A DNA stretch of 64,000 bases from Aquicella lusitana (GTDB lineage: Bacteria > Pseudomonadota > Gammaproteobacteria > DSM-16500), in the NCBI RefSeq assembly GCF_902459475.1, contig NZ_LR699114.1, forward strand, positions 558,001-622,000, written 5' to 3'. Shown here piece by piece: positions 10,035 to 63,453 of this stretch. The notes below the pieces were generated by a model that ran no database searches, was not told the origin of the DNA, and saw nothing but the letters and a program-made list of their open reading frames with translations. The first letter of the stretch is position 1; the number at the start of each line of letters is the position of its first letter. The translations under genes and the position numbers were made by a program.

Positions 10035-10050
10035 AACTGGAGATAAAAAG

Positions 10051-10797
10051 ATGTTAACTCAACCAACGTTAGAAAAACTAAGAGCGCTAAAATTATCTGG
10101 AATGGCAGAAGCTTTTTGTGAACAATTACAAAAACCCATGCCTGATCTGGATTTTGAAGCTCGCTTAGGGTTGTTGATCGATCGTGAATGGTATTTGAGA
10201 GAAAACCGCCGCTTAAACAGACGGCTTGCACAAGCAAAACTTAAAGCTCAGGCTTGCATCGAGGACATTGATTTTAAACATACCCGCAATTTAAACAAAA
10301 CTGTCGTACAAGAACTTGCCCGAGGGCAATGGATTCAACAACACTTGAACTTACTGATTACTGGGCCAACGGGTTGCGGCAAAACTTATATTGCCTGCGC
10401 GCTTGCACATAAGACTTGCTTGATTGGCATGTCTGCGCGTTATTATCGACTCCCACGTCTTTGGCATGAATTAAAAATCGCAAAAGCAAATGGTAGCTAT
10501 GCTAATTGGCTCGCACAACTAGCAAAAATTGATGTTCTTATCTTAGATGATTGGGGATTAGCAACTCCTGACGATGACCAACGCCGCGATCTGTTAGAAA
10601 TACTTGATGATCGCTACCAACGAAAATCAACTATCATCACCAGTCAGTTACCAATCACACATTGGCATGAACATTTGAATGATGCCACTCTTGCAGACGC
10701 TATCCTTGATAGATTAATTCACAACTCAATCAGATTGGAATTAGATGGCGATTCACTTAGAAAAAAACAAAAATCTTTACAGACCGATGAAGTTTAA
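10051..10797 (+). CDS. istB: IS21-family helper ATPase IstB
   Basis: This 248-residue AAA+ ATPase assists IstA. It has Walker A G-P-T-G-C-G-K-T near residue 108 and Walker B L-I-L-D-D-W-G-L about 60 residues later, followed by sensor-like I-I-T-S-Q-L-P. The start at 10051 is chosen because GGAG precedes it and M-L-T-Q-P-T-L-E-K-L is the usual IstB N-terminus; the longer frame to 9949 merely overlaps istA. Confidence 0.92.
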   Translation: MLTQPTLEKLRALKLSGMAEAFCEQLQKPMPDLDFEARLGLLIDREWYLRENRRLNRRLAQAKLKAQACIEDIDFKHTRNLNKTVVQELARGQWIQQHLNLLITGPTGCGKTYIACALAHKTCLIGMSARYYRLPRLWHELKIAKANGSYANWLAQLAKIDVLILDDWGLATPDDDQRRDLLEILDDRYQRKSTIITSQLPITHWHEHLNDATLADAILDRLIHNSIRLELDGDSLRKKQKSLQTDEV

Positions 10798-20492: not shown

Positions 20493-21689
20493 ATGGATTC
20501 AAATTTAATAAACTCGGATGTCACTTGTCATATTTGTTATGCGAAACAACTTAATCTGCTTCCCAGTTATCCAAGTTTACCACGCGTTGCTTCTGATTGT
20601 GTTCCCTGGCGTTCGGGTGGCAAATTAGCTGTATGCCCAGCTTGCTCATGCGTACAAAATCCCGTTGATAAACATTGGCACACTGAAACTGCCGAAATTT
20701 ACAGTCGATATAAAATTTATCGTCAAAGCGCGGGAAGCGAGCAAGGCGTTTTATGTGAAAACAAACAACTTATGCCCAGATCGGCGAAAATTTTTAAACA
20801 GGCAGCTCCTTTTTTTGACCTCAAAAAGACAGGGCGCTTGCTGGATATTGGATGTGCGAACGGCGAATTGCTGCGTTGCTTTGCGGCACTTGCGCCGCAC
20901 TGGAAAATGGTAGGATTCGAAATAGATGATAAGTGTCGCCAGGAAGTAGAAAGTATTCCGGGCGTTGAAGCGTTTGCTTCCGGCTCACTTGATAAATTAG
21001 ATAAGCCTTTCGATCTCATTACCTTGATGCATGTGTTGGAACATTTGCCTGATCCAAAACAATGGTTGAAGGATTTGCATCGATTGCTTAATCCGGATGG
21101 ATTGGTTCTTATCCAAGTACCTGATCCGAAAAAAAATCCTTACAATCTGCTCGTGGCAGACCATTGCTCACATTTTATTATGTCTGATCTTGTCAGTATT
21201 GCGCAGCAAGCAGGTTATGAGGTTGTGGCGCAGTCCGAAAGTTGGGTGTTGCGTGAGTTTACACTTTTAATTAGACCGCTTCCGTCACGTGGTACTGAGA
21301 GCAGTTCATCTGAAAACCAAGCCGGTGCTTTAAAGCAACTAGCTGACGACAAAGTGGCTACCTATCCAGCCAATGCCGTTCAGTGGCTCCATGATATCGT
21401 GCGTTTGGTTAAATCATTTCCCAACGACAAACCACGAGGCATTTGGGGAACGGCTATTGCGGCTACCTGGCTTTACTCCCTAATGGATCACGAGGTCGAT
21501 TTTTTTGTTGACGAGGATGCTAGTCGAATAGGTCAACAGCATCTGGGCAAACCCATTTATCACCCGGACACGGCGCCCAAAAATAGTAATGTTTTCATCG
21601 CGTTAACACCTGAAATTGCGGCAAATATTGTTAGCCGCTGGTCGCATTTGAATGTAACGCTGCACTCGCCCCCGAACCTGATTTATTAG
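20493..21689 (+). CDS. Zinc-ribbon class I methyltransferase with C-terminal Rossmann domain
   Basis: The product is about 398 residues. Its layout resembles the C-methyltransferase type: an N-terminal metal-binding C-H-I-C plus C-P-A-C, a SAM domain (L-L-D-I-G-C-A-N-G-E-L-L), an L-M-H-V-L-E-H-L-P acidic motif, and a C-terminal Rossmann-like domain (G-I-W-G-T-A-I-A-A). It lacks the Y-H-E-H catalytic segment of TylC3 enzymes, so O-methylation or an unknown reaction is equally possible. ATG 20493 fits the start of the conserved region; an ATG at 20427 adds a poorly conserved stretch. It opens the plus-strand cassette with the split transketolase. Confidence 0.7.
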   Translation: MDSNLINSDVTCHICYAKQLNLLPSYPSLPRVASDCVPWRSGGKLAVCPACSCVQNPVDKHWHTETAEIYSRYKIYRQSAGSEQGVLCENKQLMPRSAKIFKQAAPFFDLKKTGRLLDIGCANGELLRCFAALAPHWKMVGFEIDDKCRQEVESIPGVEAFASGSLDKLDKPFDLITLMHVLEHLPDPKQWLKDLHRLLNPDGLVLIQVPDPKKNPYNLLVADHCSHFIMSDLVSIAQQAGYEVVAQSESWVLREFTLLIRPLPSRGTESSSSENQAGALKQLADDKVATYPANAVQWLHDIVRLVKSFPNDKPRGIWGTAIAATWLYSLMDHEVDFFVDEDASRIGQQHLGKPIYHPDTAPKNSNVFIALTPEIAANIVSRWSHLNVTLHSPPNLIY

Positions 21690-21829
21690 GGGATCATGGA
21701 ATTAATTTCGCTGTATTTTTTCGCTGTGGATGGAATAAAATGCGAGGTTGTTGGTAGATTTGTATCACCTGAATAGATCGAATCTGTAGGAAAAGCAAAA
21801 GTAAAACCCAAGAGAAAAGGAAACCAACT

Positions 21830-22780
21830 ATGAAAGTGTTAGTAACTGGCGGCTGCGGGTATAAGGGACACGTTCTCATTCCAAAATTGCTGGATAGGGG
21901 ACATGAAGTAATAGCGTTTGATACACAATGGTTTGGTAACTATCTTCAGTCTCATCCCAAACTGTCTATTGTAAAAGGCGATGTGTGCAAGGCTGATGAC
22001 GTTCCGCTGGATGGCGTAGACTGTATTATTCACCTTTCCTCGATTGCAAACGATCCCTGTGGTGATTTGAATCCCAAATTGACATGGGAAGTGAGTGCGC
22101 TTGCTACCATGCAACTAGCTGATAAGGCAAAGAAACTGGGTATCAAACGATTCATTTACGCTTCTTCCGGCAGTGTCTATGGCGTGAAAGAAGAACCTCA
22201 GGTGACGGAAGACCTGGAATTAAACCCTATTTCCGAATACAACAAGACTAAAATGGTCGCGGAGCGCGTACTATTAAGTTACAAAGATGACATGGTTGTG
22301 CAAATTGTTCGCCCCGCGACGGTTTGTGGCTATTCTCCCCGTATGCGTTTGGATGTCTCTGTAAACATGTTAACCATGCAAGCCCTCTCAAAAGGCAAAA
22401 TTACGGTATTCGGTGGGAAACAAGTGAGACCCAATATTCATATTGATGATATTACTGATCTTTATCTATTTTTGATGGATCACCCCGAGATAACGGGTGT
22501 CTATAACGCTGGATTTGAAAACATTTCTATCCTCGATATTGCTAATATGGTTACTAAATATATCCCGGTTCCTGTTGAAGTAACCGAGTCAAATGATCCG
22601 CGCTCCTACCGTGTCAATTCCGATAAATTATTGGCAACCGGGTTTAAGCCAAAGAAAAAAGTGGAAGATGCGATTCGGGAAATTATTGAAGCCTTCAAAA
22701 AAGGGACAATTAAAGACGAAGACCGTTTTTATAATTTGAAATGGATGCAGCAAACCGTATTCCAAGGATCACCCGCTTAG
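21830..22780 (+). CDS. NAD-dependent epimerase/dehydratase (extended SDR)
   Basis: This 316-residue nucleotide-sugar SDR has NAD motif G-G-C-G-Y-K-G at residues 7-13, S-S-I-A-N-D near 70, A-S-S-G-S-V-Y-G near 110 and catalytic Y-N-K-T-K near 138-142. A phenylalanine or alanine usual in the glycine motif is replaced by tyrosine-lysine (G-Y-K-G), as in some UDP-sugar epimerase relatives. AAAGGA precedes the ATG. It lies directly upstream of the split transketolase and probably supplies a keto-sugar or 4-epimer to the cassette. Confidence 0.8.
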   Translation: MKVLVTGGCGYKGHVLIPKLLDRGHEVIAFDTQWFGNYLQSHPKLSIVKGDVCKADDVPLDGVDCIIHLSSIANDPCGDLNPKLTWEVSALATMQLADKAKKLGIKRFIYASSGSVYGVKEEPQVTEDLELNPISEYNKTKMVAERVLLSYKDDMVVQIVRPATVCGYSPRMRLDVSVNMLTMQALSKGKITVFGGKQVRPNIHIDDITDLYLFLMDHPEITGVYNAGFENISILDIANMVTKYIPVPVEVTESNDPRSYRVNSDKLLATGFKPKKKVEDAIREIIEAFKKGTIKDEDRFYNLKWMQQTVFQGSPA

Positions 22781-22875
22781 ACTCTGCGGATATGGATATT
22801 TCTTGTGATTATCTGTATGTCATTTCCAAACCTTTAGGTGTGCCGCTACTTTGTATTTGAACGCAGGGGCTGAAT

Positions 22876-23745
22876 ATGAATCGTCCTAATTACGCGCTAG
22901 TTGAAACAAACAATCAAGCCATGCTTGAAGATCTCAAAAAACGGGCAAAGCTATTGCGTTGGCGGATTATTGAAACCTCGCATAAAGCGGGCGTTCCTCA
23001 TCTTGGCTCCTGTCTTTCCTGTATTGATATTCTAACGGCGCTTTATTTTTCCGAACTGAGAATCGATCCTAAAAATCCACTCTGGCCAGGGCGCGATCGT
23101 TTTATCCTTAGTAAAGGCCATGGCGCCCCCGCATTGTTTCAAGTTTTGGCGATGCGTGGCTATTATCCTGAAAGTATGCTTGAAAATTATGGCGAGGATG
23201 GCGGTCTATTCGCAGAGCATCCGCCCGCACCACGTGAATTACCGGGGATTGAGGCGGCAACTGGTTCCCTAGGCCACGGGTTACCGATTGGTCTCGGAAT
23301 GGCTTTAGCAGCACGTATGCACAAGCAGGATTATCGTGTTTATGCATTGTTAGGTGATGGGGAATGCAACGAAGGTACGGTATGGGAAGCGGCCATGCTT
23401 GCAGCAGCGCAGAAATTAAATAATATCTGCGTCATTATTGATTTTAATAAATGGCAGGCAACAGATAGAAGCCAGGAAGTGATGGCGCTAGATCCCTTGG
23501 CAGATAAATGGCGAGCTTTTGGCTGGAATGCCTTCGAGATGGATGGTCATGATATGGAAAATATTTTAGATACCTTAAAGCATTTCCCTTCTGAAAATAG
23601 ACCGACTGCTATCATTGCCCATACAGTGAAAGGAAGTGGAATATCTTTTATGGAAGACAACAATAATTGGCATTATCGCATTCCTTCTCCTGAAGACCTT
23701 ATAAAAGCCAAAGCCGAGTTAAAGTTGGAGGTGGAACCGGTATGA
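22876..23745 (+). CDS. Transketolase N-terminal (TPP-binding) subunit
   Basis: The 289-residue alpha half of a split transketolase carries the thiamine diphosphate motif G-D-G-E-C-N-E-G near residue 158 with the N of I-D-F-N-K-W-Q about 30 residues later. S-K-G-H-G-A-P and H-G-L-P-I-G-L-G-M-A are typical transketolase segments. It transfers a two-carbon glycolaldehyde unit between sugars. It overlaps the beta subunit by 4 bp (ATGA). Placement among nucleotide-sugar genes, not with pentose-phosphate genes, suggests a dedicated role in making a special sugar. Confidence 0.88.
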   Translation: MNRPNYALVETNNQAMLEDLKKRAKLLRWRIIETSHKAGVPHLGSCLSCIDILTALYFSELRIDPKNPLWPGRDRFILSKGHGAPALFQVLAMRGYYPESMLENYGEDGGLFAEHPPAPRELPGIEAATGSLGHGLPIGLGMALAARMHKQDYRVYALLGDGECNEGTVWEAAMLAAAQKLNNICVIIDFNKWQATDRSQEVMALDPLADKWRAFGWNAFEMDGHDMENILDTLKHFPSENRPTAIIAHTVKGSGISFMEDNNNWHYRIPSPEDLIKAKAELKLEVEPV

Positions 23746-24662
23746 GAAATGCATTTGCTGATGAAATTACCCAACTCGCACGGTTAGATAAGCGAGTTGT
23801 GTTATTGTCCGGAGACATCGGAAATAAACTCTTTGACGATTTTAAACAAGTTGATCCTCAGCGTTTTTATAACTGCGGTATAGCGGAAGCTAATATGATG
23901 GGTGTGGCCGCAGGGATGGCGCTATCCGGTTTTCGTCCCATTATTTATACTATCACGCCTTTTACAACAACCCGATGTTTTGAGCAAATTCGAGTCGATG
24001 TTTGTTATCATGAAGCGCCAGTTATCATTGTAGGTACCGGTTCAGGTTTATCTTATACAGAACTCGGCCCTACCCATCACTCCCTCGAAGACATGGCTAT
24101 TTTAAGAACCTTGCCAGGCATGTGTGTGATGGCGCCAGGTGATGCGACGGAGTTACGGTTGGCGCTCAGGGCAGCTTTACAACAGAACCACCCTGTCTAT
24201 ATTCGTATCGGCAAAAAAGGCGAGCCTGATATACATGCGCATAGGACGCAGTTGAATATCGGCAAAGTGTTTATAGTGCGTGAAGGTACCGAAATTGGAA
24301 TATTAAGTGCGGGAACGATAATTACTGAAGTCATCAAGGCAGCTGATTTATTAAAAGAAAAGGGTATTTCAGCTGAAGTAGTAAGTTCCCACACGATTAA
24401 ACCGCTGGATGATGCGTATTTGAAATCAGCCGCTAAACGCTTTAAATTGCTGGTTACCGTAGAAGAGCATGGCTTGATTGGCGGATTGGGCGGTGCTGTT
24501 GCAGAATGGAGCGCAAGGGAAAACACAAAGGTGCCGCATCTTAGCATTGGTACGCCGGATGAATTTATGCACGAAACCGGCAGTCAGGCATATGCACGCA
24601 AAAAATATGGTTTAGTCGCCGATGCTATCGCTGAACGTGTGATTTCGTATTTAAACAATTAG
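23742..24662 (+). CDS. Transketolase C-terminal (pyrimidine-binding) subunit
   Basis: The 306-residue beta half has the pyrimidine-binding domain (G-I-A-E-A-N-M-M-G-V-A-A-G-M-A near residue 47, including the catalytic glutamate) and a C-terminal transketolase domain (V-E-E-H-G-L-I-G-G-L-G near 245). Together with the upstream half it forms a complete split transketolase of the two-gene type. No 1-deoxyxylulose synthase-specific insertion is seen. Confidence 0.88.
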   Translation: MRNAFADEITQLARLDKRVVLLSGDIGNKLFDDFKQVDPQRFYNCGIAEANMMGVAAGMALSGFRPIIYTITPFTTTRCFEQIRVDVCYHEAPVIIVGTGSGLSYTELGPTHHSLEDMAILRTLPGMCVMAPGDATELRLALRAALQQNHPVYIRIGKKGEPDIHAHRTQLNIGKVFIVREGTEIGILSAGTIITEVIKAADLLKEKGISAEVVSSHTIKPLDDAYLKSAAKRFKLLVTVEEHGLIGGLGGAVAEWSARENTKVPHLSIGTPDEFMHETGSQAYARKKYGLVADAIAERVISYLNN

Positions 24663-24691
24663 CCAAACGCCACCCTAAACAGGCAACTATT

Positions 24692-25297
24692 ATGCGGATT
24701 GGGTTTGATTTTGATAATACCATCGTCAGTTACGACGCGCTCTTCCATAAAGTAGCTATGGAGCAGGGCGCGATTGATCAAACCATTCCAGTTAACAAGC
24801 TTGCTGTGCGAGACCATTTGCGCGCTACTGACCGTGAACCCATTTGGACCGAAATGCAGGGCTATGTGTATGGTGCCCGCATGGATGAAGCACAAAGCTA
24901 TCCTGACGCATTAAAAGTGATGCGGCGCCTGAAACAGGTGGGGCATACCCTGGTTATTGTGAGTCATAAAACAAAATATCCCTATCTGGGCAAGCAGTAT
25001 GACTTACATGAAGCCGCCCGCAGTTGGATTGAAAAGCACCTTCGTGATGAAGCAGGCAGGTTAATTCCAGCTGATCATGTTTTCTTTGAAATTACTAAAG
25101 AGGATAAATTGTCTCGTATAGACCAATTGGATTGTGATGTATTCATAGATGATTTACCAGAAATTCTGTTAGCTTCGCTTTTTCCTGGAAAAACCAGGCG
25201 TTACTTATTTGATCCCGAGCAGTATCATATGAATGCGCATTTGCCTGATATTAAAGTTGTTTCATCCTGGCCTGTATTTGAAAGTTATTTGTTATGA
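24692..25297 (+). CDS. HAD-superfamily phosphatase-like protein
   Basis: This is a 201-residue haloacid dehalogenase-like hydrolase. Motif I is F-D-F-D-N-T (residues 4-9, nucleophile Asp5 or Asp7), motif II serine in I-V-S-H-K, a lysine in K-E-D-K-L, and the motif III acidic pair in I-D-D-L-P. The start follows a weak site 29 bp after the transketolase. Between the transketolase and a kinase it probably dephosphorylates a sugar-phosphate intermediate. Confidence 0.75.
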   Translation: MRIGFDFDNTIVSYDALFHKVAMEQGAIDQTIPVNKLAVRDHLRATDREPIWTEMQGYVYGARMDEAQSYPDALKVMRRLKQVGHTLVIVSHKTKYPYLGKQYDLHEAARSWIEKHLRDEAGRLIPADHVFFEITKEDKLSRIDQLDCDVFIDDLPEILLASLFPGKTRRYLFDPEQYHMNAHLPDIKVVSSWPVFESYLL

Positions 25298-26349
25298 GTC
25301 AATCAGACGATTATTTACCACAAATTAAATCATTGCTGCAAAAAGCCCGGCTTTCGACTGATATTTTGCAATTTAAAAATTGTGCGCACGGCGGAAATAA
25401 CCGTACTTACAGGCTAGAGACTGCGGATGGTGTGTTTGCTGTTAAAAAATATTTTCGCGGGCCAAACGATAAGCGAGACCGTTTGACATCAGAATTCTCA
25501 TTTTTGGAATATGCAAAAAGAGCCGCGCCTGATTTTGTTCCATTTGCCTATGCAAGCGATGCTGAATACGGATTGGCGCTTTATGAATTTATTGAGGGAT
25601 CCTCTCTGAAGCCGGGAGAGATTACAGAACATGAATTATCCCAAGCGATCGCGTTTTTTTGCTTACTTAATGACCCGAAGATGAAAGCATCTGCTCTGCA
25701 TTTACCGCTTGCCTCCGAAGCGGGTTTCAGCATCCAGGATCATTTATATTCCGTTAATACCCGGATTCGCGAGCTCCAACAGGCTGTTTCAAGTGATAAT
25801 GAAATAAATAGTCAGGATGCACGGGAATTGATTGAGACGTTAAGCGAGCGTTGGTGCTTGTTGGTGAATGAATGTAAAAAAATAGCAACCATGCAGCAGA
25901 TTGACATTGATGCTAAACTTGATGTGTCTCAGCGGTGTATTTCACCTTCGGATTTTGGGTTTCATAACGCCCTGCGGGCAGGTGCGAATAATAATATTCG
26001 CTTCATCGATTTTGAGTATGCAGGCTGGGATGATCCCGGTCGCATGGTCAATGATTTTTTTTCGCAATTGGCTGTGCCCATTCCTCCTGTTTACTATGAA
26101 AGATTTGTACAGGAAGTGATGACGCCCTTCCCGCAAGCAGACCAGTTAGTTCAGCGTGCCCGGTTATTAAAAGCGGTTTATCGCATTAAATGGTGCTGTA
26201 TTGCTTTAAATATCTTTATTCCTGTCCATATGGCAAGACGGCAGTTTGCTAATCCCAATCTTAACGTGGTTGATTTACGAAAAACACAGCTTGCAAAAGC
26301 TGAATTACTTTTAAAAACCGTGGAGGTTTCTAACTATGCCTCATATTGA
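25294..26349 (+). CDS. Aminoglycoside phosphotransferase/choline kinase-like kinase
   Basis: This 351-residue APH-fold kinase has the ATP-binding lysine in F-A-V-K-K-Y-F, catalytic loop S-D-F-G-F-H-N (Asp with the D-x4-N arrangement; the usual histidine two residues before the aspartate is replaced by proline), and D-F-E-Y-A-G-W-D-D-P supplying the metal ligand. It overlaps the HAD gene by 4 bp and the next gene by 14 bp, so the cassette is tightly coupled. In this setting it would phosphorylate a sugar or an alcohol such as glycerol, opposite to the HAD enzyme. The substrate is unknown. Confidence 0.72.
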   Translation: MSQSDDYLPQIKSLLQKARLSTDILQFKNCAHGGNNRTYRLETADGVFAVKKYFRGPNDKRDRLTSEFSFLEYAKRAAPDFVPFAYASDAEYGLALYEFIEGSSLKPGEITEHELSQAIAFFCLLNDPKMKASALHLPLASEAGFSIQDHLYSVNTRIRELQQAVSSDNEINSQDARELIETLSERWCLLVNECKKIATMQQIDIDAKLDVSQRCISPSDFGFHNALRAGANNNIRFIDFEYAGWDDPGRMVNDFFSQLAVPIPPVYYERFVQEVMTPFPQADQLVQRARLLKAVYRIKWCCIALNIFIPVHMARRQFANPNLNVVDLRKTQLAKAELLLKTVEVSNYASY

Positions 26350-27007
26350 TTTCATGTCCGTTCTACATAAAAGCACGCAGCGCGATTATTTGGCTCGCGT
26401 GAATGACGCAGATTATCCTAAAGCAAAGGCTTCGGAATTAGCCAAAAAATGGGATTTTGATTATTGGGATGGCGACAGACGTATTTGTTACGGCGGTTAT
26501 CGTTATATGGAAGGCCGTTGGGAAAAAGTAGCACGAGCGTTAGCGGAACATTATAACATCAAGCCGGGTGATAAAATTCTGGATGTAGGGTGTGGCAAGG
26601 GATTTCTTTTATATGACTTTACTAAAGTTGTTCCTGGGGTAGAAGTCTATGGCCTTGATATCTCCGGTTACGCAATTGCCAATTCAAAAGAAGAAATACG
26701 CGATCGCTTACAAGTCGGTAGTGCGACTTCTTTGCCATTTGCAGATAATTATTTTGATCTTGTTATTTCAATCAACACATTGCATAACTTGCATAATTAC
26801 GAACTGGAACTCGCCCTGCGTGAAATCGAGCGAGTGGGAAAAGAAAACAAATATATTTGCGTAGAATCTTATCGCAACGAAGCGGAAAAGGCTAATTTAC
26901 TCTATTGGCAAGTCACCTGCGAATCCTTTTGTACACCTAGGGAATGGCAATGGTGGTTCGAATTGACTGGATATACAGGTGATTATTCTTTTATTTATTT
27001 CGAATAA
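26336..27007 (+). CDS. Class I SAM methyltransferase
   Basis: This is a 223-residue methyltransferase with motif I I-L-D-V-G-C-G-K-G-F-L-L near residue 81 and a strand-2 end G-L-D-I-S-G-Y. The later S-I-N-T-L-H-N-L-H-N-Y stands for motif IV. It overlaps the kinase by 14 bp and is followed by the dehydrogenase after 25 bp. It is a member of the split-transketolase cassette and likely methylates the sugar or side chain made there. Confidence 0.75.
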   Translation: MPHIDFMSVLHKSTQRDYLARVNDADYPKAKASELAKKWDFDYWDGDRRICYGGYRYMEGRWEKVARALAEHYNIKPGDKILDVGCGKGFLLYDFTKVVPGVEVYGLDISGYAIANSKEEIRDRLQVGSATSLPFADNYFDLVISINTLHNLHNYELELALREIERVGKENKYICVESYRNEAEKANLLYWQVTCESFCTPREWQWWFELTGYTGDYSFIYFE

Positions 27008-27032
27008 TAAACGAGTTTAAAAGGGAACAACC

Positions 27033-28085
27033 ATGCAATCGTTACCCAAAAAAATGAAAGCCGCGATATTAACGGAGCTCAAAAAGCCCCTCACGGTTGC
27101 CGAAATTGAATTACCGGAAACACTTGCTGTTGGCCAGGTTCTGGTGAAAATTCATTTTAGCGGTATCTGTGGGTCGCAATTAGGCGAAATTGACGGTGCC
27201 AAAGGGGAAGATAAATATTTGCCGCATTTGCTGGGCCATGAAGCATCAGGTACGGTCTTAGCTGTTGGGCCGGGTGTGCGTCATGTCAAGCCGGGGAATA
27301 AAGTAGTTTTGCATTGGCGAAAGGGCGTCGGAATTGATGCAGAAACCCCGACGTATTACTGGGATGGGCGCAAGGTGAATGCCGGATGGGTGACGACATT
27401 GAGCGAATATGCCATTGTTTCAGAAAATCGTGTAACGGCCATTCCTGATGAGAGTGATCTGGAAGTTGCGGCGCTCTTTGGTTGTGCGGTAACGACAGGC
27501 TTCGGCATTATTGAAAACAATGCTAAAGTCCGGATTGGCGAATCCGTTGTTGTTTTTGGCGCAGGCGGAATTGGACTTAACATTATTCAGGCTGCGGCCT
27601 TAGTGTCAGCGTATCCCATCATCGCAGTTGATTTATATGAGAGTAAATTGAAATTAGCGAAAGAAATGGGCGCGACACATGTGATAAATAGCCGGGATAA
27701 AGATCCACGTACTGAGATTCTTTCAATTTTAAGCGCCAGGAAGTTAGATGTTTTTATTGATAACACAGGATTACCTAATGTTATTGAACTGGGGTACAGC
27801 TTAACTCATGCACAGGGTAAAGTTATTCTGGTAGGGGTGCCACGTAATGGCAGTAACATCAACATTTATTCCCTGCCATTACACTTTGGAAAACAAATCA
27901 CTGGATCACATGGGGGTGAAGCTATTCCTCAGCACGATATCTCACGTTATCACCATTTATATCAGGCAGGAAGAATCAAATTACGTGAACTGATTACAGA
28001 TTATTTTTCACTCGACGATATTAATGATGCAATTCAAAACATGCGTAATGGTGAAGTACATGGCAGGTGTTTAGTAAAAATGTAA
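27033..28085 (+). CDS. Zinc-type alcohol dehydrogenase (medium-chain)
   Basis: This 350-residue MDR-family dehydrogenase has catalytic zinc residues in G-I-C-G-S-Q and G-H-E-A-S-G and NAD motif G-A-G-G-I-G near 180. The four-cysteine structural zinc loop normally found around residues 95-115 is missing, replaced by a region with no cysteine. This is known in some MDR branches. It would oxidise or reduce an alcohol of the sugar or polyol made by the cassette. A GC hairpin terminator follows at 28101-28121. Confidence 0.8.
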   Translation: MQSLPKKMKAAILTELKKPLTVAEIELPETLAVGQVLVKIHFSGICGSQLGEIDGAKGEDKYLPHLLGHEASGTVLAVGPGVRHVKPGNKVVLHWRKGVGIDAETPTYYWDGRKVNAGWVTTLSEYAIVSENRVTAIPDESDLEVAALFGCAVTTGFGIIENNAKVRIGESVVVFGAGGIGLNIIQAAALVSAYPIIAVDLYESKLKLAKEMGATHVINSRDKDPRTEILSILSARKLDVFIDNTGLPNVIELGYSLTHAQGKVILVGVPRNGSNINIYSLPLHFGKQITGSHGGEAIPQHDISRYHHLYQAGRIKLRELITDYFSLDDINDAIQNMRNGEVHGRCLVKM

Positions 28086-29853: not shown

Positions 29854-31080
29854 TTAAAAAATCGCCAGAGAAGGAATAGCGGTTACAAATTTTGCACCCC
29901 AATCCCGAACATAGGCAAGCTGTGCGGCAATTTCATCACGCAGATTCCAGGGCAATATGACAATCCAATGGGGCTTATCCAGTGACAGCTGGTTTTCTGC
30001 AACGATAGGGATGCGGCTGCCAGGTAAATATTTATGCTGTTTGGCAGGATTGCGGTCAACGACATATGCCAGCAAGTCTGGCCGCACGCCTGAAAAATTT
30101 AACAGTGTGTTGCCTTTTGCTGCCGCGCCATAACCAACGACTTTTTCCTGTTTGGATTGCGCTTCAAGCAGGAATTTTAAAAATTGCTGCTTGATATCAG
30201 TGATGCGATTTTGAAATCCGGCATAAAAAGATAAGTTTGCCATGCCAGCGTTGCTTTCAAGATTGAGCAATTCTGCGACACGTTGGCTGATCGGTTGTTT
30301 ACCCGTGTCTATCCGCTGCGCAAAAACCCGCAGGCTGCCGCCATGGGTAGGTAGTTCTTCAACATCGAACACGCTCAAGCCATTCTTTTCAAAAATACGT
30401 TTTACTGCAGAAAGCGAAAGATAGGAAAAATGCTCGTGATAAATCGTGTCAAATTGTGATTCAGTCATCAGCCGGTATAAATGGGGGAATTCAAACGTAG
30501 CGACTCCCTCGGGATTCAGCAGGAGGGAAAATCCTGAAACGAAGTCATTAATATTGGGAACGTGCGCCAGGACATTATTGGCAATGAGCAAGTCAGCCCC
30601 ATAATTATTTTTTACCAATTTTTTGGCAAAGTCGACTCCGAAGAATTCCATAAAAACGGTTAAATTTTTATTAATTGCGACAGTTGCGGTGCTTTCGGTC
30701 GGTTCAACGCCATAGCAGGGAATGCCTTTTTCCTGAAAGAATTGCAGGAGATAGCCATCGTTGGAAGCAATTTCTCCGACCATGCTATTCGGTCCTAATT
30801 TAAAGCGCTCAATCATAGCCAGTGCATATTTTTTGCTGTGTTCCAGCCAAGTGGAGGAATAAGAGCTGAAATAAGCGTATTCCGAAGAAAATAATTCTTC
30901 CCGGCCCGTGTAGTCCTCTGTTTGAGCTAGCCAGCAATTTGAACAGATCGAAACTTTCAAGGGATACCATTTCTCAGGTGCGCTCAGGCTCTGGCGAGTC
31001 AGATAGGCGTTCGAGGGGGGGGCACTGCCCAGATTGGCCAGGGGAATTTCTAGTTCAGCAAAACAATGTCTACATTTCAT
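29854..31080 (-). CDS. TylC3/NovU-like sugar C3-methyltransferase
   Basis: This is a 408-residue canonical nucleotide-sugar C-methyltransferase. A four-cysteine zinc module (C3, C6 and C-S-N-C near 47-50) precedes the SAM domain (E-I-A-S-N-D-G-Y-L-L) and the catalytic Y-H-E-H-F-S-Y-L-S-L with downstream L-P-T-H-G-G-S-L-R. The C-terminal Rossmann domain starts G-Y-G-A-A-A-K-G-N. It is expected to transfer a methyl to C3 of a 4-keto-6-deoxyhexose. It overlaps the 3,5-epimerase gene by 11 bp and is in the CDP-glucose operon, predicting a CDP-6-deoxy-3-C-methyl-hexose (virenose-like). That product is an inference. Confidence 0.87.
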   Translation of the reverse strand: MKCRHCFAELEIPLANLGSAPPSNAYLTRQSLSAPEKWYPLKVSICSNCWLAQTEDYTGREELFSSEYAYFSSYSSTWLEHSKKYALAMIERFKLGPNSMVGEIASNDGYLLQFFQEKGIPCYGVEPTESTATVAINKNLTVFMEFFGVDFAKKLVKNNYGADLLIANNVLAHVPNINDFVSGFSLLLNPEGVATFEFPHLYRLMTESQFDTIYHEHFSYLSLSAVKRIFEKNGLSVFDVEELPTHGGSLRVFAQRIDTGKQPISQRVAELLNLESNAGMANLSFYAGFQNRITDIKQQFLKFLLEAQSKQEKVVGYGAAAKGNTLLNFSGVRPDLLAYVVDRNPAKQHKYLPGSRIPIVAENQLSLDKPHWIVILPWNLRDEIAAQLAYVRDWGAKFVTAIPSLAIF

Positions 31081-31639
31081 TCATGAGTCCCTTGAATTCG
31101 GCTGTTAAGAGGGGATGGTTCCTGTCGCGATCAGACATCTGCGTGATAGCTAATGGCCAGCTAATTTTAAGCATGGGATCCATGGGAGACAAGCCGCCTT
31201 CGGATGGCTGATGATATGGTGCCGTGTGAAAATAAAGGAGTTCGCAATCACCACTTAAAGTTTGAAATCCGTGGGCAAATCCTTTTGGGATGAGGAGGCT
31301 GTTACAAAGCTCGGGGGAGAGTATCTCGCCATGCCATTGCAGAAAGGTGGGCGAATTTTCACGCAAATCAACAGCAACATCAAATACACGCCCGCGCAAA
31401 CAAGTCACTATTTTAGTTTCTGCGTAGGGAGCGCGCTGGAAATGCATACCCCTCACGGATCCGCAGGCTTGCGTGAGAGTTAAGTTTATTTGAGCAATGG
31501 ATTCAGATAAACCGAATCCGGATAATATTTCCTGGCAGTACATACGCTGTAAAAAACCACGACTATCCCCAATGGGATTCCGCTTAATGAGCGCCAATCC
31601 TGGGAGAGGTAAATCCTGTAAACTGATTCGATTATCCAT
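31070..31639 (-). CDS. dTDP-4-dehydrorhamnose 3,5-epimerase-like (RmlC-type) protein
   Basis: The product is about 189 residues of the RmlC cupin type. The catalytic histidine is in S-V-R-G-M-H-F-Q-R-A, and the acid/base tyrosine and sugar loop appear as L-L-Y-F-H-T-A-P-Y. F-A-H-G-F-Q-T is the usual end of the active-site strand. ATG 31639 (D-N-R-I-S-L follows) is preferred; the longer frame to 31693 runs into rfbG and has no ribosome-binding site. It overlaps rfbG by 8 bp. With rfbFG it acts on CDP-4-keto-6-deoxyglucose, epimerising C3 and/or C5. Confidence 0.83.
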   Translation of the reverse strand: MDNRISLQDLPLPGLALIKRNPIGDSRGFLQRMYCQEILSGFGLSESIAQINLTLTQACGSVRGMHFQRAPYAETKIVTCLRGRVFDVAVDLRENSPTFLQWHGEILSPELCNSLLIPKGFAHGFQTLSGDCELLYFHTAPYHQPSEGGLSPMDPMLKISWPLAITQMSDRDRNHPLLTAEFKGLMNEM

Positions 31640-32702
31640 TCGCAGCTTCTTGATAGCGTTTGATTTGTGATTGGCTAAATTGCAACATATCATTGCCTTC
31701 CAGCCAATGACGATACCATTCTACTGTTTCAGTGATCGTTTTTTGCAATTGCCAACGAGGCGTCCATTTCAGGTATTCTTTTGCTTTGGTGGAATCTAAC
31801 AGCAAAAGCGAGGCTTCGTGTCTTTCATGCGCTTGTGCTGGCATATGATAGGGTACATTAAGTAAATGACAAACCCGGTTTGCTATTTCGCCTACCGGCC
31901 GCATGTCTTCAACGCGAGGCCCAAAATTCCAGGCTTCAGCAAAGCGCGAGCCGTTTTCACCGAGAAGATGCTCAGCGAGCAAGATATACCCATGAATGGA
32001 TTCCAGCACATGCTGCCAGGGCCGCACTGCCTGGGGATAACGGAGTGTAACGGAGCCGGATGAAGAAAATGCTCTGACACAATCAGGGATTAGGCGGTTA
32101 TCAGCCCAATCGCCTCCGCCTATGACATTTCCGGCTCGTGCTGTAGCCAAATGCATATTGCGGCTGGAAGAAAAAAAACTGGCACGATAGGCGGCGCTGA
32201 CTAATTCGGCGCAGGCTTTGCTGTTACTGTAGGGATCGATACCGCCCAGTCTGTCAGGTTCGCGATAGGGGTAAATCCATTCCCTGTTCTCATAACATTT
32301 ATCGGTAGTCACAATAACAGCAGCACGCACGGCATCGCAGCATCGTATGGCTTCGAGCACATTTGCTGTTCCCATTACATTAACGGCATACGTTTCGATG
32401 GGGGCATCATAGGAATATTGCACTAGGGATTGAGCGGCGAGATGAAACACGACCTCAGGTTTGACCGTGTTTATTAATTTTTTTAATTCAGTGAGATTGC
32501 AAATATCCAGATATGTATCCGATGCCAGCAGAGTGGGAATACGGGCAGTATTGTAAAGGTTAGGTTGTGTTGCAGGTGGAAGCGCCACACCATGAACTTC
32601 TGCTCCGAGGTCTGCCAGCCATAAGCTTAGCCAGCTGCCTTTAAATCCTGTATGGCCGGTCAATAAAATCCGTTTGTTTTTCCAAAGCATATCATCTTTC
32701 AT
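31632..32702 (-). CDS. rfbG: CDP-glucose 4,6-dehydratase
   Basis: This 356-residue NAD-dependent dehydratase makes CDP-4-keto-6-deoxyglucose from CDP-glucose. Diagnostic blocks are L-L-T-G-H-T-G-F-K-G-S-W near residue 12, V-T-T-D-K-C-Y-E-N-R-E-W near 131, and D-P-Y-S-N-S-K-A-C-A-E near 155 with the catalytic Tyr/Lys. The 4-bp ATGA overlap with rfbF confirms the operon. Confidence 0.95.
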   Translation of the reverse strand: MKDDMLWKNKRILLTGHTGFKGSWLSLWLADLGAEVHGVALPPATQPNLYNTARIPTLLASDTYLDICNLTELKKLINTVKPEVVFHLAAQSLVQYSYDAPIETYAVNVMGTANVLEAIRCCDAVRAAVIVTTDKCYENREWIYPYREPDRLGGIDPYSNSKACAELVSAAYRASFFSSSRNMHLATARAGNVIGGGDWADNRLIPDCVRAFSSSGSVTLRYPQAVRPWQHVLESIHGYILLAEHLLGENGSRFAEAWNFGPRVEDMRPVGEIANRVCHLLNVPYHMPAQAHERHEASLLLLDSTKAKEYLKWTPRWQLQKTITETVEWYRHWLEGNDMLQFSQSQIKRYQEAANG

Positions 32703-33514
32703 CCGGAGATCGCCTTCAGTTTTTTCACCTGATCCTGATTGTTCGATAAAACCCAGGGGGCTTTTCCGCGCGACCAGAGATCTTCCAGATAATTTTTATC
32801 ACGCAAGGTATCCATTGCGTGCCAAAAACCATTATGCCGGTAAGCCATCAATTGCCCCGATGTGGCAAGGGAAGTCAAGGGTTCTGCTTCCCAGACGCTT
32901 TGGTCATCAGCGATGTAGTTAATTACTTTGGGTGACAGGACAAAAAAACCGCCATTGATCCAACCGCCTTCGCCTTTGGGTTTTTCTACAAATCCATTCA
33001 CAATGTCATTATCGCCCAGATCCAATGCGCCATAACGTCCTGGTGGTTGTATGGTTGTGACGGTAGCGAGTTTACCATGAGCACGATGGAAATCGATTTG
33101 CTCCTGGATATTGATGTCACCCAAGCCATCGCCATAGGTAAAACAAAACATTTCTTCATCTGCAATATAGGATGCAACCCGCTTTAAGCGGCCGCCGGTG
33201 AGGGTATGTTCACCCGTATCCAGCAAAGTCACACGCCAAGGTTCAGCATAGTGCTGATGCACTTCCATTCTGTTATCACGCATATGAAAGGTAACATCGG
33301 ACATATGAAGAAAATAATTGGCAAAATATTCTTTAATTACATAGCCGCGATAACCGCAACAGATAATAAAATCATTGATGCCGTAAGCTGAATAAATCTT
33401 CATGATATGCCATAGAATAGGCCGCCCACCGATCTCTATCATTGGTTTGGGCTTGAGTGAGGTTTCTTCACTGATACGGGTTCCTAAACCACCTGCCAAT
33501 ATAACCGCCTTCAT
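32699..33514 (-). CDS. rfbF: Glucose-1-phosphate cytidylyltransferase
   Basis: This 271-residue nucleotidyltransferase forms CDP-glucose from CTP and glucose-1-phosphate. The N-terminal A-V-I-L-A-G-G-L-G-T-R-I-S-E-E-T, then K-P-M-I-E-I-G-G-R-P-I-L-W-H, F-T-Y-G-D-G-L-G-D and F-W-H-A-M-D-T-L-R-D are typical of RfbF. It is the committed step of the CDP-deoxysugar branch, upstream of rfbG in one transcript. Confidence 0.95.
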   Translation of the reverse strand: MKAVILAGGLGTRISEETSLKPKPMIEIGGRPILWHIMKIYSAYGINDFIICCGYRGYVIKEYFANYFLHMSDVTFHMRDNRMEVHQHYAEPWRVTLLDTGEHTLTGGRLKRVASYIADEEMFCFTYGDGLGDINIQEQIDFHRAHGKLATVTTIQPPGRYGALDLGDNDIVNGFVEKPKGEGGWINGGFFVLSPKVINYIADDQSVWEAEPLTSLATSGQLMAYRHNGFWHAMDTLRDKNYLEDLWSRGKAPWVLSNNQDQVKKLKAISG

Positions 33515-44885: not shown

Positions 44886-44969
44886 CCATGAAGTCCGTAG
44901 TCTGTTGAGTGCAGTGATCAGCTTTATACCATTTTTTTTAGACCCAAAAAAGGCATAAATTTTTATCAA

Positions 44970-62466: not shown

Positions 62467-63453
62467 TTAAGGCTTATGAGAATAGTCAAATGGCTGAGCT
62501 TTTAACTCATCAAAATGGTTACGAGCCCAAGCAATACAATCATCCAGTCCCTGATCCAGGGAAATGTGGTCTTCCCAGTTGAGTTCTTTACGAAGTTTGG
62601 CGCTTTCGAGGTGATAAGCCGCATCCTTTCCTAATCGTTCGCCCACTACTTCCACATGGTCATTAAAATCAACGTTCAGTTTGTTGCAAATACGCTCAAC
62701 AAGATCCCGAATAGAAATCACTTCATTGGTAGAAATATGATAAGTGTCACCATTATTGCCATTTAGCATAATCTGCCATGTAGCTTCCGATACATCTTTC
62801 ATGTGAATAAATGAGCGTGTAGAGACGCCTCCACCATGCAACTGAAGTTTGCGGCCTAGCATAATGAATAAAATAGTGCGGGGAATAATGCGATAAAGCT
62901 GCTGGCCGGGGCCATAGACATTTGCTGCTCGGGTTGTCACAACCGGAAATTGGTAGGCATTATAAAAGGTACGTAAACTCATGTCAGCAGCCGCACGGGA
63001 AACGGCGTAAGGGGTACTGGGGTTAAAGGGATAATTCTCATTCACAAAACCCGAGCAACTACCATACACTTCCGGAGTTGAAACATGAACATACCGCTTA
63101 AGAAAATCACACTTGCGTAATTCATCATGTAATTTTACGGTTGAGACGGCATTTGTCATAAACCAGTCGCTAGGATATTTCCAGCTCTCCGCCACCATGC
63201 TCTGCGCGGCAAAGTTAACAATGTAATCGGGCTTGACTTGATGTATCAAATCCATTATTTCAGGCAAGTGGTGATTGAGATCGAGTTTATGAAAACTAAA
63301 GTTTTGATGATCACGCCATTTGTAGGGCAGCAATGCGTTGGCTGGCTCGGATGAGCGACTGGTACCAATAATTTTGACATTTTTATCGAGCGCATAATCA
63401 ATAAAGCTTGCGCCCGAAAATGAATTGCTGCCAATAACCATAAGTTTATGCAT
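62467..63453 (-). CDS. dTDP-glucose 4,6-dehydratase/GDP-mannose 4,6-dehydratase-like SDR
   Basis: This 328-residue extended SDR has an N-terminal motif I-G-S-N-S-F-S-G in place of the usual G-G-A-G-F-I-G, V-S-T-P-E-V-Y-G near 118 and R-A-A-N-V-Y-G-P-G-Q-Q. The catalytic tetrad reads Y-A-V-S-R, with arginine where lysine is expected (Y-x3-K). I recall related proteins that seem to share this Arg, so it may be a subfamily trait. It may make 4-keto-6-deoxy sugars for wecE or the RmlD-like enzyme, but with uncertain activity. Confidence 0.7.
   Translation of the reverse strand: MHKLMVIGSNSFSGASFIDYALDKNVKIIGTSRSSEPANALLPYKWRDHQNFSFHKLDLNHHLPEIMDLIHQVKPDYIVNFAAQSMVAESWKYPSDWFMTNAVSTVKLHDELRKCDFLKRYVHVSTPEVYGSCSGFVNENYPFNPSTPYAVSRAAADMSLRTFYNAYQFPVVTTRAANVYGPGQQLYRIIPRTILFIMLGRKLQLHGGGVSTRSFIHMKDVSEATWQIMLNGNNGDTYHISTNEVISIRDLVERICNKLNVDFNDHVEVVGERLGKDAAYHLESAKLRKELNWEDHISLDQGLDDCIAWARNHFDELKAQPFDYSHKP

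What the first reader, a model, noticed from the sequence alone, without database searches (positions are those of the whole stretch)
20493..28085. Tightly coupled cassette: methyltransferase, epimerase, split transketolase, HAD, APH-kinase, methyltransferase, Zn-dehydrogenase
Several of the eight same-strand genes overlap by 4-14 bp. A transketolase inside a polysaccharide locus suggests a two-carbon transfer onto a nucleotide or phospho-sugar, with the HAD and kinase acting in sequence. I know of no established pathway with exactly this gene set. This is the best candidate in the window for an undescribed sugar or side-chain pathway; the linear order of enzymes is hypothetical.
Basis: partly seen in the sequence, partly recalled or inferred. 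Interest (0 to 1): 0.75.

Follow-up and report, generated by a model that had tools for sequence, protein, structure and literature searches.

The report
Transketolase cassette for unusual surface sugar
A tight group of genes, shared by bacteria from many phyla, appears to build an undescribed activated sugar for the cell surface using a dedicated two-part transketolase whose substrate pocket differs from that of the ordinary enzyme.

Summary
In detail: eight intact same-strand genes; three of seven junctions overlap, by 4, 4 and 14 bp. Adjacency is not incidental: among 80 loci found with the kinase alone, HAD is present in 78 and the transketolase C half in 67; 12 of the other 13 genomes hold a split C half elsewhere (7 of these a divergent subtype). 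The core is epimerase, TK-N, TK-C, HAD, kinase, methyltransferase and Zn-dehydrogenase, plus an SDR (window 62467-63453), often accompanied by heptose-type genes. The first gene (420-aa methyltransferase) is not core. The genome has a separate full-length transketolase. In the split enzyme the published RSFHR phosphate-orienting motif reads R-[K/R]-F-G-R in most of 68 sequences, and the Asp469 position is Leu or Asn. The epimerase's closest solved relative is, I recall, Cj1427, a GDP-heptose C4-dehydrogenase. I favour C2 transfer onto a keto (nucleotide) sugar; chain extension to an unusual ketose phosphate is nearly as likely. Product, substrates and step order are unproven. New variant of a known kind (an NDP-sugar cassette).

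The parts
20493..21689 (+). Methyltransferase (398 aa from this start, 420 from 20427); neighbour, not a core member
   Evidence: Methyltransf_23 2.1e-27; family found in 12 of 80 cassette loci
21830..22780 (+). EPI: extended SDR, candidate C4-dehydrogenase (or epimerase) of an NDP-sugar
   Evidence: Best solved relative 6vo6 E 1.8e-38, next 6.5e-22; Tyr and Lys of the YxxxK motif 56 of 56 rows; in 55 of 80 loci
22876..23745 (+). TKN: N half of split transketolase (diphosphate-binding part)
   Evidence: Transketolase_N 1.2e-38; closest solved 6yak, C. hydrogenoformans split TK N chain, 1.8e-73; substrate-site His of the PHLG, SKGH and NWH motifs kept in every row with a letter, a fourth His is H 55, Q 10
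23742..24662 (+). TKC: C half of split transketolase, non-canonical pocket R-K-F-G-R with Leu at the Asp469 position
   Evidence: Pfam; closest solved 6yaj 1.6e-58; pocket columns in 67 to 68 of 69 rows, controls
24692..25297 (+). HAD-type phosphatase, nearest fold 5'(3')-deoxyribonucleotidase
   Evidence: DxDNT, SH[K/R]T, Lys and DD motifs invariant or nearly so in 78-79 rows; model pLDDT 97.5; Foldseek 3bwv 4.6e-7; in 78 of 80 loci
25294..26349 (+). APH/choline-kinase-fold small-molecule kinase
   Evidence: APH 6e-10; catalytic motifs conserved; model pLDDT 94.0; Foldseek corramycin phosphotransferase, ethanolamine kinase, APH(9), LicA
26336..27007 (+). MT223: SAM-dependent methyltransferase
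   Evidence: Methyltransf_31 4.5e-22; family in 65 of 80 loci
27033..28085 (+). Zn-dependent medium-chain dehydrogenase
   Evidence: ADH_zinc_N 2.6e-23; likely catalytic-zinc residues: Cys of ICG/ICH 67/67, His of GHE 67/67, later Cys 64/67 with Asp 3; family in 66 of 80 loci
62467..63453 (-). SDR_c1: dTDP-glucose/GDP-mannose dehydratase-like SDR that sits inside the cassette in most other genomes
   Evidence: 560 bits to the cassette SDR_c1 profile; family in 69 of 80 loci; GDP_Man_Dehyd 5.2e-52

Best explanation
Genes 21830-28085 are a shared biosynthetic cassette for one unusual activated sugar of a surface polysaccharide. Shown here: the gene set, its conserved order, co-variation of most core genes, intact catalytic motifs, an altered transketolase pocket, and relatives of heptose-activating enzymes in the same locus. 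Inferred, and the model I commit to: (1) a sugar phosphate is isomerised, phosphorylated and nucleotide-activated by the SIS protein and the domain-reversed HldE relative; (2) EPI, a relative of a GDP-heptose C4-dehydrogenase, makes a 4-keto nucleotide sugar, with SDR_c1 changing it further; (3) the split transketolase (expected to be an alpha2beta2 enzyme) moves a two-carbon ketol group onto that keto-sugar, giving a C2-branched sugar; (4) the Zn-dehydrogenase reduces the new side-chain ketone; (5) MT223 adds a methyl group. The HAD phosphatase and APH kinase move a phosphate somewhere in this route, most likely on the precursor or on the ketol donor; their exact step is unknown. About 0.9 that it is one functional unit for an unusual sugar; about 0.4 for the ketone-acceptor step as written.
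For: Conserved unit: kinase-only search, then HAD in 78 of 80 loci, TKN 65, TKC 67, MT223 65, ADH 66, EPI 55, SDR_c1 69; TKN+TKC+HAD+APH on one strand in 64 of 80, these plus EPI, MT223, ADH and SDR_c1 in 45 of 80. Thirteen loci lacked TKC: the genomes of all 10 first checked hold a split TKC elsewhere (3 at 55-57 percent identity, 7 at 38-41 percent), then 2 of 3. Two genomes hold complementary parts, HAD-APH in one place and SDR_c1-TKN-TKC-MT223-ADH in another. Distances co-vary (TKN-HAD 0.73, MT223-ADH 0.77, TKN-EPI 0.70), unlike the neighbouring CMT14 (-0.27 to 0.09). Not housekeeping: a 694-aa transketolase lies elsewhere. Pocket: S385 position Lys 31/Arg 33 of 68, H461 position Gly 68/68, D469 position Leu 61/Asn 7, both flanking Arg kept, against RSFHR in ordinary and C. 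hydrogenoformans enzymes. Mutation at R358, S385, D469 and R520 of E. coli TK is reported to improve activity on aromatic aldehydes. Closest solved relative of EPI is 6vo6. Reversed HldE and SIS relatives upstream of the window. Precedent: split TKs proposed, not proven, to add hydroxyacetyl to a keto sugar in miharamycin and amipurimycin.
Against: No product or activity is known. The pocket change suggests altered specificity, not specifically a ketone acceptor; R358 and R520 are kept and Lys/Arg is gained, which could equally mean a differently placed phosphate. The first residue of the TPP-site [G]DG motif is Ser in 49 of 66 N halves (Gly 17). The HAD-APH pair, the most constant partner, has no clear role in the branching model. 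Co-variation controls are mixed: the cupin c11 (0.17-0.44) and SDR c16 (0.24-0.40) overlap the kinase's own values (0.31-0.62). The HldE relative co-varies weakly with the cassette (0.12-0.45), so heptose-type activation may be a swappable neighbour. EPI's link to Cj1427 is one sequence match plus recall that 6vo6 is Cj1427. A CDP-sugar-like set beside the cassette (31632-33514) could supply a different acceptor in this genome.
Confidence: 0.42

Rival explanations
1. Chain extension: the split transketolase joins a C2 unit to an unusual aldose (phosphate), giving a non-standard heptulose or octulose phosphate; the SIS protein isomerises it, APH or the HldE-type kinase phosphorylates C1, HAD removes the terminal phosphate, a nucleotidyltransferase activates it; SDRs, ADH and MT223 tailor it. 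This works like the lincosamide octose route (recalled) with transketolase in place of transaldolase.
For: Gives every gene a job, including the HAD-APH pair (78 of 80 loci). EPI-SIS and SIS-SDR_c1 adjacencies each occur 27 times. 38 of 41 long TKN-bearing loci hold an SIS or reversed HldE gene.
Against: Four loci also hold a GmhB-like phosphatase (cluster c31: L022, L024, L031, L032; L022 and L032 scanned), so HAD need not be the terminal phosphatase. Absence of Asp at the 469 position in all 68 scored sequences disfavours an ordinary 2-hydroxy-aldehyde acceptor. The SIS proteins depart from GmhA at E65 (Asp in 40 of 41) and c8 at H180 (Gln 28 of 28).
Confidence: 0.3
2. Ordinary transketolase that simply supplies sedoheptulose 7-phosphate for heptose synthesis inside the polysaccharide locus.
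For: Heptose-type genes nearby; split transketolases with normal activity exist.
Against: The genome already has a full-length transketolase. Neither the RSFHR His nor Asp469 is kept in any of 68 scored sequences, while the active C. hydrogenoformans enzyme keeps them.
Confidence: 0.1
3. Polyol branch: transketolase makes a ketose (phosphate), the Zn-dehydrogenase reduces it to a polyol, HAD and APH shift its phosphate, and it is attached as a CDP- or phospho-polyol.
For: TKC-ADH adjacency occurs 16 times and ADH-HAD 23 times. ADH matches galactitol-1-phosphate 5-dehydrogenase at 3.1e-35, though its best model is NDMA-dependent alcohol dehydrogenase at 3.1e-64 and all are under their cut-offs. 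The nucleotidyltransferase domain of this genome's reversed HldE matches cytidylyltransferases.
Against: Leaves EPI and SDR_c1, which look like sugar-nucleotide SDRs, unexplained. I did not search for polyol-specific cytidylyltransferases.
Confidence: 0.1
4. Incidental adjacency in a polysaccharide locus.
For: Polysaccharide loci are mosaics, and this window has IS481 and IS21 elements.
Against: Conserved order and recurrence across phyla.
Confidence: 0.02

Closest known systems
[quoted passage not shown] passages and section 12 read)
   Same: Two-chain arrangement and substrate-site His and cofactor Glu; best solved match of both halves.
   Different: It has RSFHR and, by alignment, the Asp469 position; the cassette enzyme has mostly R-[K/R]-F-G-R and Leu/Asn. 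The cassette pair sits among NDP-sugar genes of a genome that also has a full-length enzyme.
Split transketolases of miharamycin/amipurimycin clusters (PMC12247030, passages read)
   Same: Split TK acting after a proposed oxidoreductase; [quoted passage not shown]
   Different: Those are secondary-metabolite genes, and the 13 further ones listed there are all streptomycete; this cassette is in polysaccharide-type loci of many phyla, with HAD, APH, MT and heptose-type genes. Sequences were not compared here.
YerE/ErwE branching enzymes for yersiniose A and erwiniose (PMC12247030, passages)
   Same: C-C branching of a 4-keto nucleotide sugar in O-antigen synthesis.
   Different: YerE-like enzymes are of the decarboxylase superfamily and take 2-keto acids; here the enzyme is a transketolase by Pfam.
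GDP-heptose modification of Campylobacter jejuni (Cj1427 and partners, PMC10680097, passages read)
   Same: EPI resembles 6vo6 (recalled to be Cj1427); GmhA-like, HldE-like, sugar-1-phosphate nucleotidyltransferase and SDR genes occur in cassette loci.
   Different: That paper's main text has no mention of transketolase. I did not look there for a HAD-APH pair of this kind.
Coxiella burnetii O-antigen locus with reversed HldE CBU0678 (PMC5843353, passages read)
   Same: Domain-reversed HldE; phosphoheptose isomerase and epimerase genes close by; CBU0678 is required for full-length LPS there.
   Different: I did not test for a transketolase cassette in that species; the main texts of three papers searched hold no mention of transketolase.
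6-Deoxy-6-sulfofructose transketolase SqwGH (PMC11659671, section 22 and passages read)
   Same: Split TK with altered phosphate-orienting motif, read by its authors as most likely altering specificity.
   Different: RAFDR motif, catabolic cluster.

Membership tests
Transketolase (split-gene) | Cofactor Glu411, substrate-site His residues | tested here: met
   Glu 68/68; His of PHLG 65/65, SKGH 66/66, NWH 67/67 of rows with a letter; a fourth is His 55, Gln 10
Transketolase (split-gene) | GDG start of the TPP-binding motif | tested here: inconclusive
   Asp and second Gly 66/66, but the first residue is Ser 49, Gly 17; the window protein has Gly
Transketolase (split-gene) | RSFHR phosphate-orienting motif and Asp469 of ordinary enzymes | tested here: not met
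   Arg 67/67, Lys 31/Arg 33/other 4, Phe 68, Gly 68, Arg 68; Asp469 position Leu 61, Asn 7
Transketolase (split-gene) | Ketol transfer activity | not testable with these tools
   no assay
YerE-like branching enzymes | Decarboxylase-superfamily ThDP domain order | tested here: not met
   Transketolase_N, Transket_pyr, Transketolase_C are the best families; TPP_enzyme_C only weakly (1.8e-5)
ADP/GDP-heptose pathway | GmhA equivalog with E65 and H180 | tested here: not met
   gmhA is the best family but below cut-off (102.6 and 119.1 against 209.45 bits); Asp at E65 in 40 of 41, Gln at H180 in c8 28 of 28, His kept in c27 13 of 13
ADP/GDP-heptose pathway | HldE kinase and adenylyltransferase domains | tested here: inconclusive
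   both domains present in reversed order, 123.9 and 105.9 bits against cut-offs 345 and 181.5
ADP/GDP-heptose pathway | GmhB phosphatase | tested here: not met
   the cassette HAD matches no NCBIfam model at E 1e-3; a separate GmhB-like gene occurs in 4 of 80 loci (two of the four scanned)
Cj1427-type C4-dehydrogenase | Sequence closeness and Tyr-Lys pair | tested here: inconclusive
   6vo6 best by 16 orders of magnitude; Tyr/Lys 56/56; identity of 6vo6 as Cj1427 is recalled; activity untested
Lincosamide octose pathway | Transaldolase, SIS, kinase, HAD, GDP-transferase set | not tested
   recalled analogy only
APH/choline kinase fold | Fold and catalytic Asp, Asn, metal-binding Asp | tested here: met

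The most novel reading that the evidence does not exclude
A family of split transketolases, spread by cassette through more than a dozen phyla (by record titles), uses a keto nucleotide sugar as acceptor and builds C2-branched (up to nine-carbon) sugars of O-antigens and capsules, a reaction proposed for miharamycin but, according to a 2025 review, not yet shown in vitro for a transketolase.
Probability: 0.33. Interest if true: 0.82.

Novelty: new variant of a known kind. Interest (0 to 1): 0.62.

Why it matters
If the model holds, a widespread class of surface sugars has been missed, and the open question whether any transketolase accepts a ketone sugar becomes directly testable with proteins from environmental bacteria. 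Even if only the chain-extension version holds, the cassette predicts a new long-chain sugar and gives a marker (HAD-APH-split TK with an R-[K/R]-F-G-R pocket) for annotating polysaccharide loci in many phyla. It also contrasts with the remark that mesophilic bacteria seem to have only full-length transketolase (PMC7661550, passage seen).

Tried and rejected
Incidental adjacency: rejected (with mixed controls). Housekeeping transketolase: disfavoured. The 420-aa methyltransferase as a core gene: rejected (12 of 80). HAD as the GmhB replacement: weakened, since 4 of 80 loci carry a GmhB-like gene as well.

My own errors and limits: I counted cluster c31 as SIS; one search showed it to be a GmhB-like phosphatase. 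SIS counts therefore fall from 42 to 40 of 80, from 31 to 29 of 41 long TKN loci, and 'both SIS and HldE' from 19 to 17 of 41; 'either' stays 38 of 41. In one search the full-length reference was misaligned at the S385, H473 and R520 columns; one search repeats the alignment on a subset (the S385 column still has a gap against the full-length enzyme), and the S385 assignment rests on the pairwise alignment. The 69 rows include this genome, the second pair of L026 (which is not beside HAD-APH) and a fragment (L025) that scored nowhere. Residue numbers printed belong to extracted stretches, so I name motifs instead; E. coli TK numbering beyond that given is recalled. In one search greedy ORF picking appears to have hidden genes in some loci; with profiles replaced it. 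Profiles were built from the same loci, so hits inside them are not independent of the clustering; the loci themselves were chosen by the kinase alone. For structure prediction I gave 52 of 77 HAD and 45 of 80 kinase relatives plus the window protein. The tree dropped hits under 150 bits, under 231 residues, with 20 or more X, and identical copies; the window's place in its 74-leaf clade follows by elimination from the printed clades.

Only the best 80 of 245 kinase relatives were kept by the tool. Some record titles are doubtful (metagenome bins labelled Bordetella parapertussis). L021's genome had no split TKC, only a 650-aa ORF at 32 percent that I take for DXS. The co-occurrence P of 1.1e-5 in 95 genomes of one family used a threshold chosen after seeing data and ignores kinship. 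PDB sequence search gave nothing for the kinase and only spurious repeat proteins for HAD. A plasmid search with HAD found one hit, 36.7 percent, hypothetical. Literature: ten searches, listings only partly shown where many papers matched (15 of 50, 5 of 7), none showed a described cassette; most subscription journals are not held.

Full report
What is there. Eight open reading frames lie on the + strand between 20427 and 28085. Junctions are +140, +95, -4, +29, -4, -14 and +25 bp, so the described tight packing is right for the run from the transketolase N half to the dehydrogenase. Pfam supports the labels, the HAD one weakly. In the NCBIfam rows shown no model reached its cut-off for any of the eight, and HAD and the kinase had no hit at all. 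Catalytic motifs are conserved across relatives: HAD DxDNT, SH[K/R]T, Lys and DD; kinase Asn, Lys, Asp, Asn and metal-binding Asp; dehydrogenase Cys, His and Cys; EPI Tyr and Lys. AlphaFold models of HAD and kinase are confident (pLDDT 97.5 and 94.0). Foldseek puts HAD nearest 5'(3')-deoxyribonucleotidases and the kinase among antibiotic, ethanolamine and choline kinases.

Is it a unit? I searched one genome per species with the kinase alone (245 relatives, best 80 kept, 80 loci). By profile, HAD is in 78 of 80, TKN 65, TKC 67, MT223 65, ADH 66, EPI 55, SDR_c1 69; the first methyltransferase family in only 12. TKN, TKC, HAD and APH share a strand in 64 of 80, and with EPI, MT223, ADH and SDR_c1 in 45 of 80; the commonest order, EPI-SIS-SDR_c1-TKN-TKC-HAD-APH-MT223-ADH, occurs in 23 loci and EPI-TKN-TKC-ADH-HAD-APH-SDR_c1-MT223 in 7. 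Record titles span Proteobacteria, Cyanobacteria, Planctomycetes, Verrucomicrobia, Elusimicrobia, Omnitrophota, Nitrospirae, Nitrospina, Neomarinimicrobiota, SAR324, Acidobacteria, Poribacteria, Dehalococcoidia and others (many are metagenome bins). Thirteen loci lacked TKC in reach: the genomes of all ten first checked have a split TKC elsewhere (three at 55-57 percent identity, seven, all in the family of G278, at 38-41 percent), and two of the other three do. In two genomes the cassette is in complementary parts, HAD-APH here and SDR_c1-TKN-TKC-MT223-ADH there (L059/L124, L081/L126). In three genomes of the family of G278 (record title Gemmataceae) TKC lies about 11 kb from the kinase on the same contig. 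In 95 genomes of that family the kinase is in 11 and TKC (E at most 1e-50) in 37, including all 11 (P 1.1e-5 by hypergeometric test, threshold chosen afterwards, kinship ignored). Pairwise distances co-vary within the core (TKN-TKC 0.75, TKN-HAD 0.73, MT223-ADH 0.77, ADH-EPI 0.74; the kinase less, 0.31-0.62) and not with the neighbouring C-methyltransferase CMT14 (-0.27 to 0.09); but two other neighbours, c11 (0.17-0.44) and c16 (0.24-0.40), overlap the kinase's values, so this control is mixed.

The rest of the gene set. In other genomes the cassette often includes or touches a reversed HldE (nucleotidyltransferase then PfkB kinase), a GmhA-like SIS protein, a sugar-1-phosphate nucleotidyltransferase and SDR_c1. 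Of 41 long TKN-bearing loci, 38 hold SIS or reversed HldE; the three without are L019, L068, L083 (corrected counts SIS 29, HldE 26, both 17). In this genome SDR_c1 is at 62467-63453 on the minus strand, and a reversed HldE (702 bits), a frameshifted SDR and an SIS gene lie 1.0 to 4.6 kb upstream of the window start. In two same-genus genomes such genes lie close to HAD-APH-TKN-TKC: in L156 HldE, SIS and EPI come before it, in L155 EPI, SIS and the SDR. The genome also has an HldE match in the usual domain order and two further GmhA-like genes, so the locus copies are extra. The HldE relative co-varies weakly with the cassette (0.12-0.45), so it may be a swappable neighbour.

The transketolase. 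A 694-aa full-length enzyme is elsewhere in the genome. The split halves match the C. hydrogenoformans split enzyme best among solved structures, which was shown to be an active alpha2beta2 enzyme (PMC7661550, passages and section 12). A published comparison names the phosphate-orienting residues RSFHR in S. stipitis and C. hydrogenoformans enzymes and RAFDR in the sulfofructose enzyme (PMC11659671, section 22). In the C halves of the cassette loci (69 rows, one an unscored fragment, one the second pair of L026) the motif is Arg 67 of 67, Lys 31 or Arg 33 (four others), Phe 68, Gly 68, Arg 68, and the Asp469 position is Leu 61 or Asn 7. In the tree of 119 C halves the window-type clade has 74 leaves (support 0.86); a second clade of 13 (support 1.0), four of them directly beside HAD-APH and seven from genomes with HAD-APH elsewhere, also has Gly and Leu. 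Split TKs outside these clades vary: L106 and L134 keep His and Asp, L113 has Gly and Asp. So the pocket is altered throughout the cassette, while the cofactor Glu and most substrate-site His residues are kept; the first residue of the N half's GDG motif is Ser in 49 of 66 and Gly in 17, Gly in this window. Mutations at R358, S385, D469 and R520 of the E. coli enzyme are reported to improve activity on aromatic aldehydes, so these positions do bear on the acceptor.

The keto-sugar side. The best solved relative of EPI is 6vo6 (1.8e-38; next 6.5e-22), deposited as a putative sugar-nucleotide epimerase/dehydratase; I recall, but no call shows, that it is Cj1427. [quoted passage not shown]). SDR_c1 resembles 4,6-dehydratases, but the residue after the Thr/Ser of the usual Thr-Asp-Glu (recalled) is Pro in 67 of 72 rows (Ala 2, Asp 2, gap 1) and the usual Lys is Lys 34, Arg 33, His 4, so it may not dehydrate. 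SIS proteins depart from GmhA's E65 and, in c8, H180 (residue roles in PMC5387315, passages).

How it works, and what is known. I favour ketol transfer to a keto nucleotide sugar because a C4-dehydrogenase relative, a pocket without Asp469 (which I recall as the residue that reads the acceptor's hydroxyl), and a dehydrogenase able to reduce the new ketone recur together, and because the same reaction is proposed for split TKs of miharamycin and amipurimycin. A 2025 review says that reaction is still pending proof and that 13 further candidate TKs listed by an earlier survey are all from streptomycetes (PMC12247030, passages). Chain extension to an unusual ketose phosphate explains the HAD-APH pair better and is nearly as likely. 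Four loci carry a GmhB-like phosphatase as well, which suggests that HAD has another substrate. The closest studied locus in spirit is the Coxiella burnetii O-antigen region with its reversed HldE CBU0678, required for full-length LPS (PMC5843353, passages); I did not establish whether a transketolase cassette exists there.

Distribution near home. In a sample of 274 genomes of the class, C halves of cassette type (49 percent identity or more to the window's) are in 6; of the five other than this genome, four have HAD and APH within the short fetched stretch and the fifth has a partial APH match with MT223. In the 36 genomes held for the order, the HAD profile (E at most 1e-20) is in 11, six at 262-303 bits and five at 177-201 bits; in four of those five stretches a TKC of the second clade lies beside it, in the fifth none was in reach. 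The patchiness and the cross-phylum spread point to horizontal transfer (inference).

Verdict. Real, conserved, not described in the open literature that I could search, mechanism open between two concrete and testable models. It is a new variant of a known kind (an NDP-sugar cassette), with a credible chance of a new enzyme reaction.

Noticed in passing
window 4219-5265 (-) and 8502-10797 (+): IS481-family transposase and an IS21-type pair (IstA/IstB), above NCBIfam cut-offs, between the upstream HldE/SIS module and the cassette; they may explain the scattering of the gene set.
   Followed up: partly
L086:17271-18300 (about 2.7 to 1.7 kb upstream of the window start): SDR gene of the SDR309 type between reversed HldE and SIS has a shifted reading frame; broken gene or assembly error.
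   Followed up: partly
window 29854-33514 (-): C-methyltransferase (Methyltransf_13/14), a dehydratase-like SDR and a nucleotidyltransferase plus an RfbC-like gene (by reading): a separate sugar-nucleotide set right beside the cassette that could make a branched methyl sugar or supply a keto-sugar.
   Followed up: no
window 42558-44969 (-), 46050-48626 (+), perhaps 1260-3278 (-): Large membrane-type proteins that look alike by eye; the first two match no Pfam family.
   Followed up: no
L014, L028, L038, L040, L054, L055 and others, downstream of the cassette: A second recurring group (c13 methyltransferase, WbuC-type cupin c11, SDR c16, C-methyltransferase CMT14, PhyH c22); CMT14 and c16 co-vary at 0.83, but CMT14 does not co-vary with the cassette.
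   Followed up: partly
L026:12165-13863: A second, divergent TKN-TKC pair in the same locus as the cassette pair, also with Gly and Leu at the H461 and D469 positions.
   Followed up: no
SIS_c8 family, 28 sequences: GmhA-like proteins with Asp for E65 and Gln for H180 in all 28: a possible new SIS isomerase specificity.
   Followed up: partly
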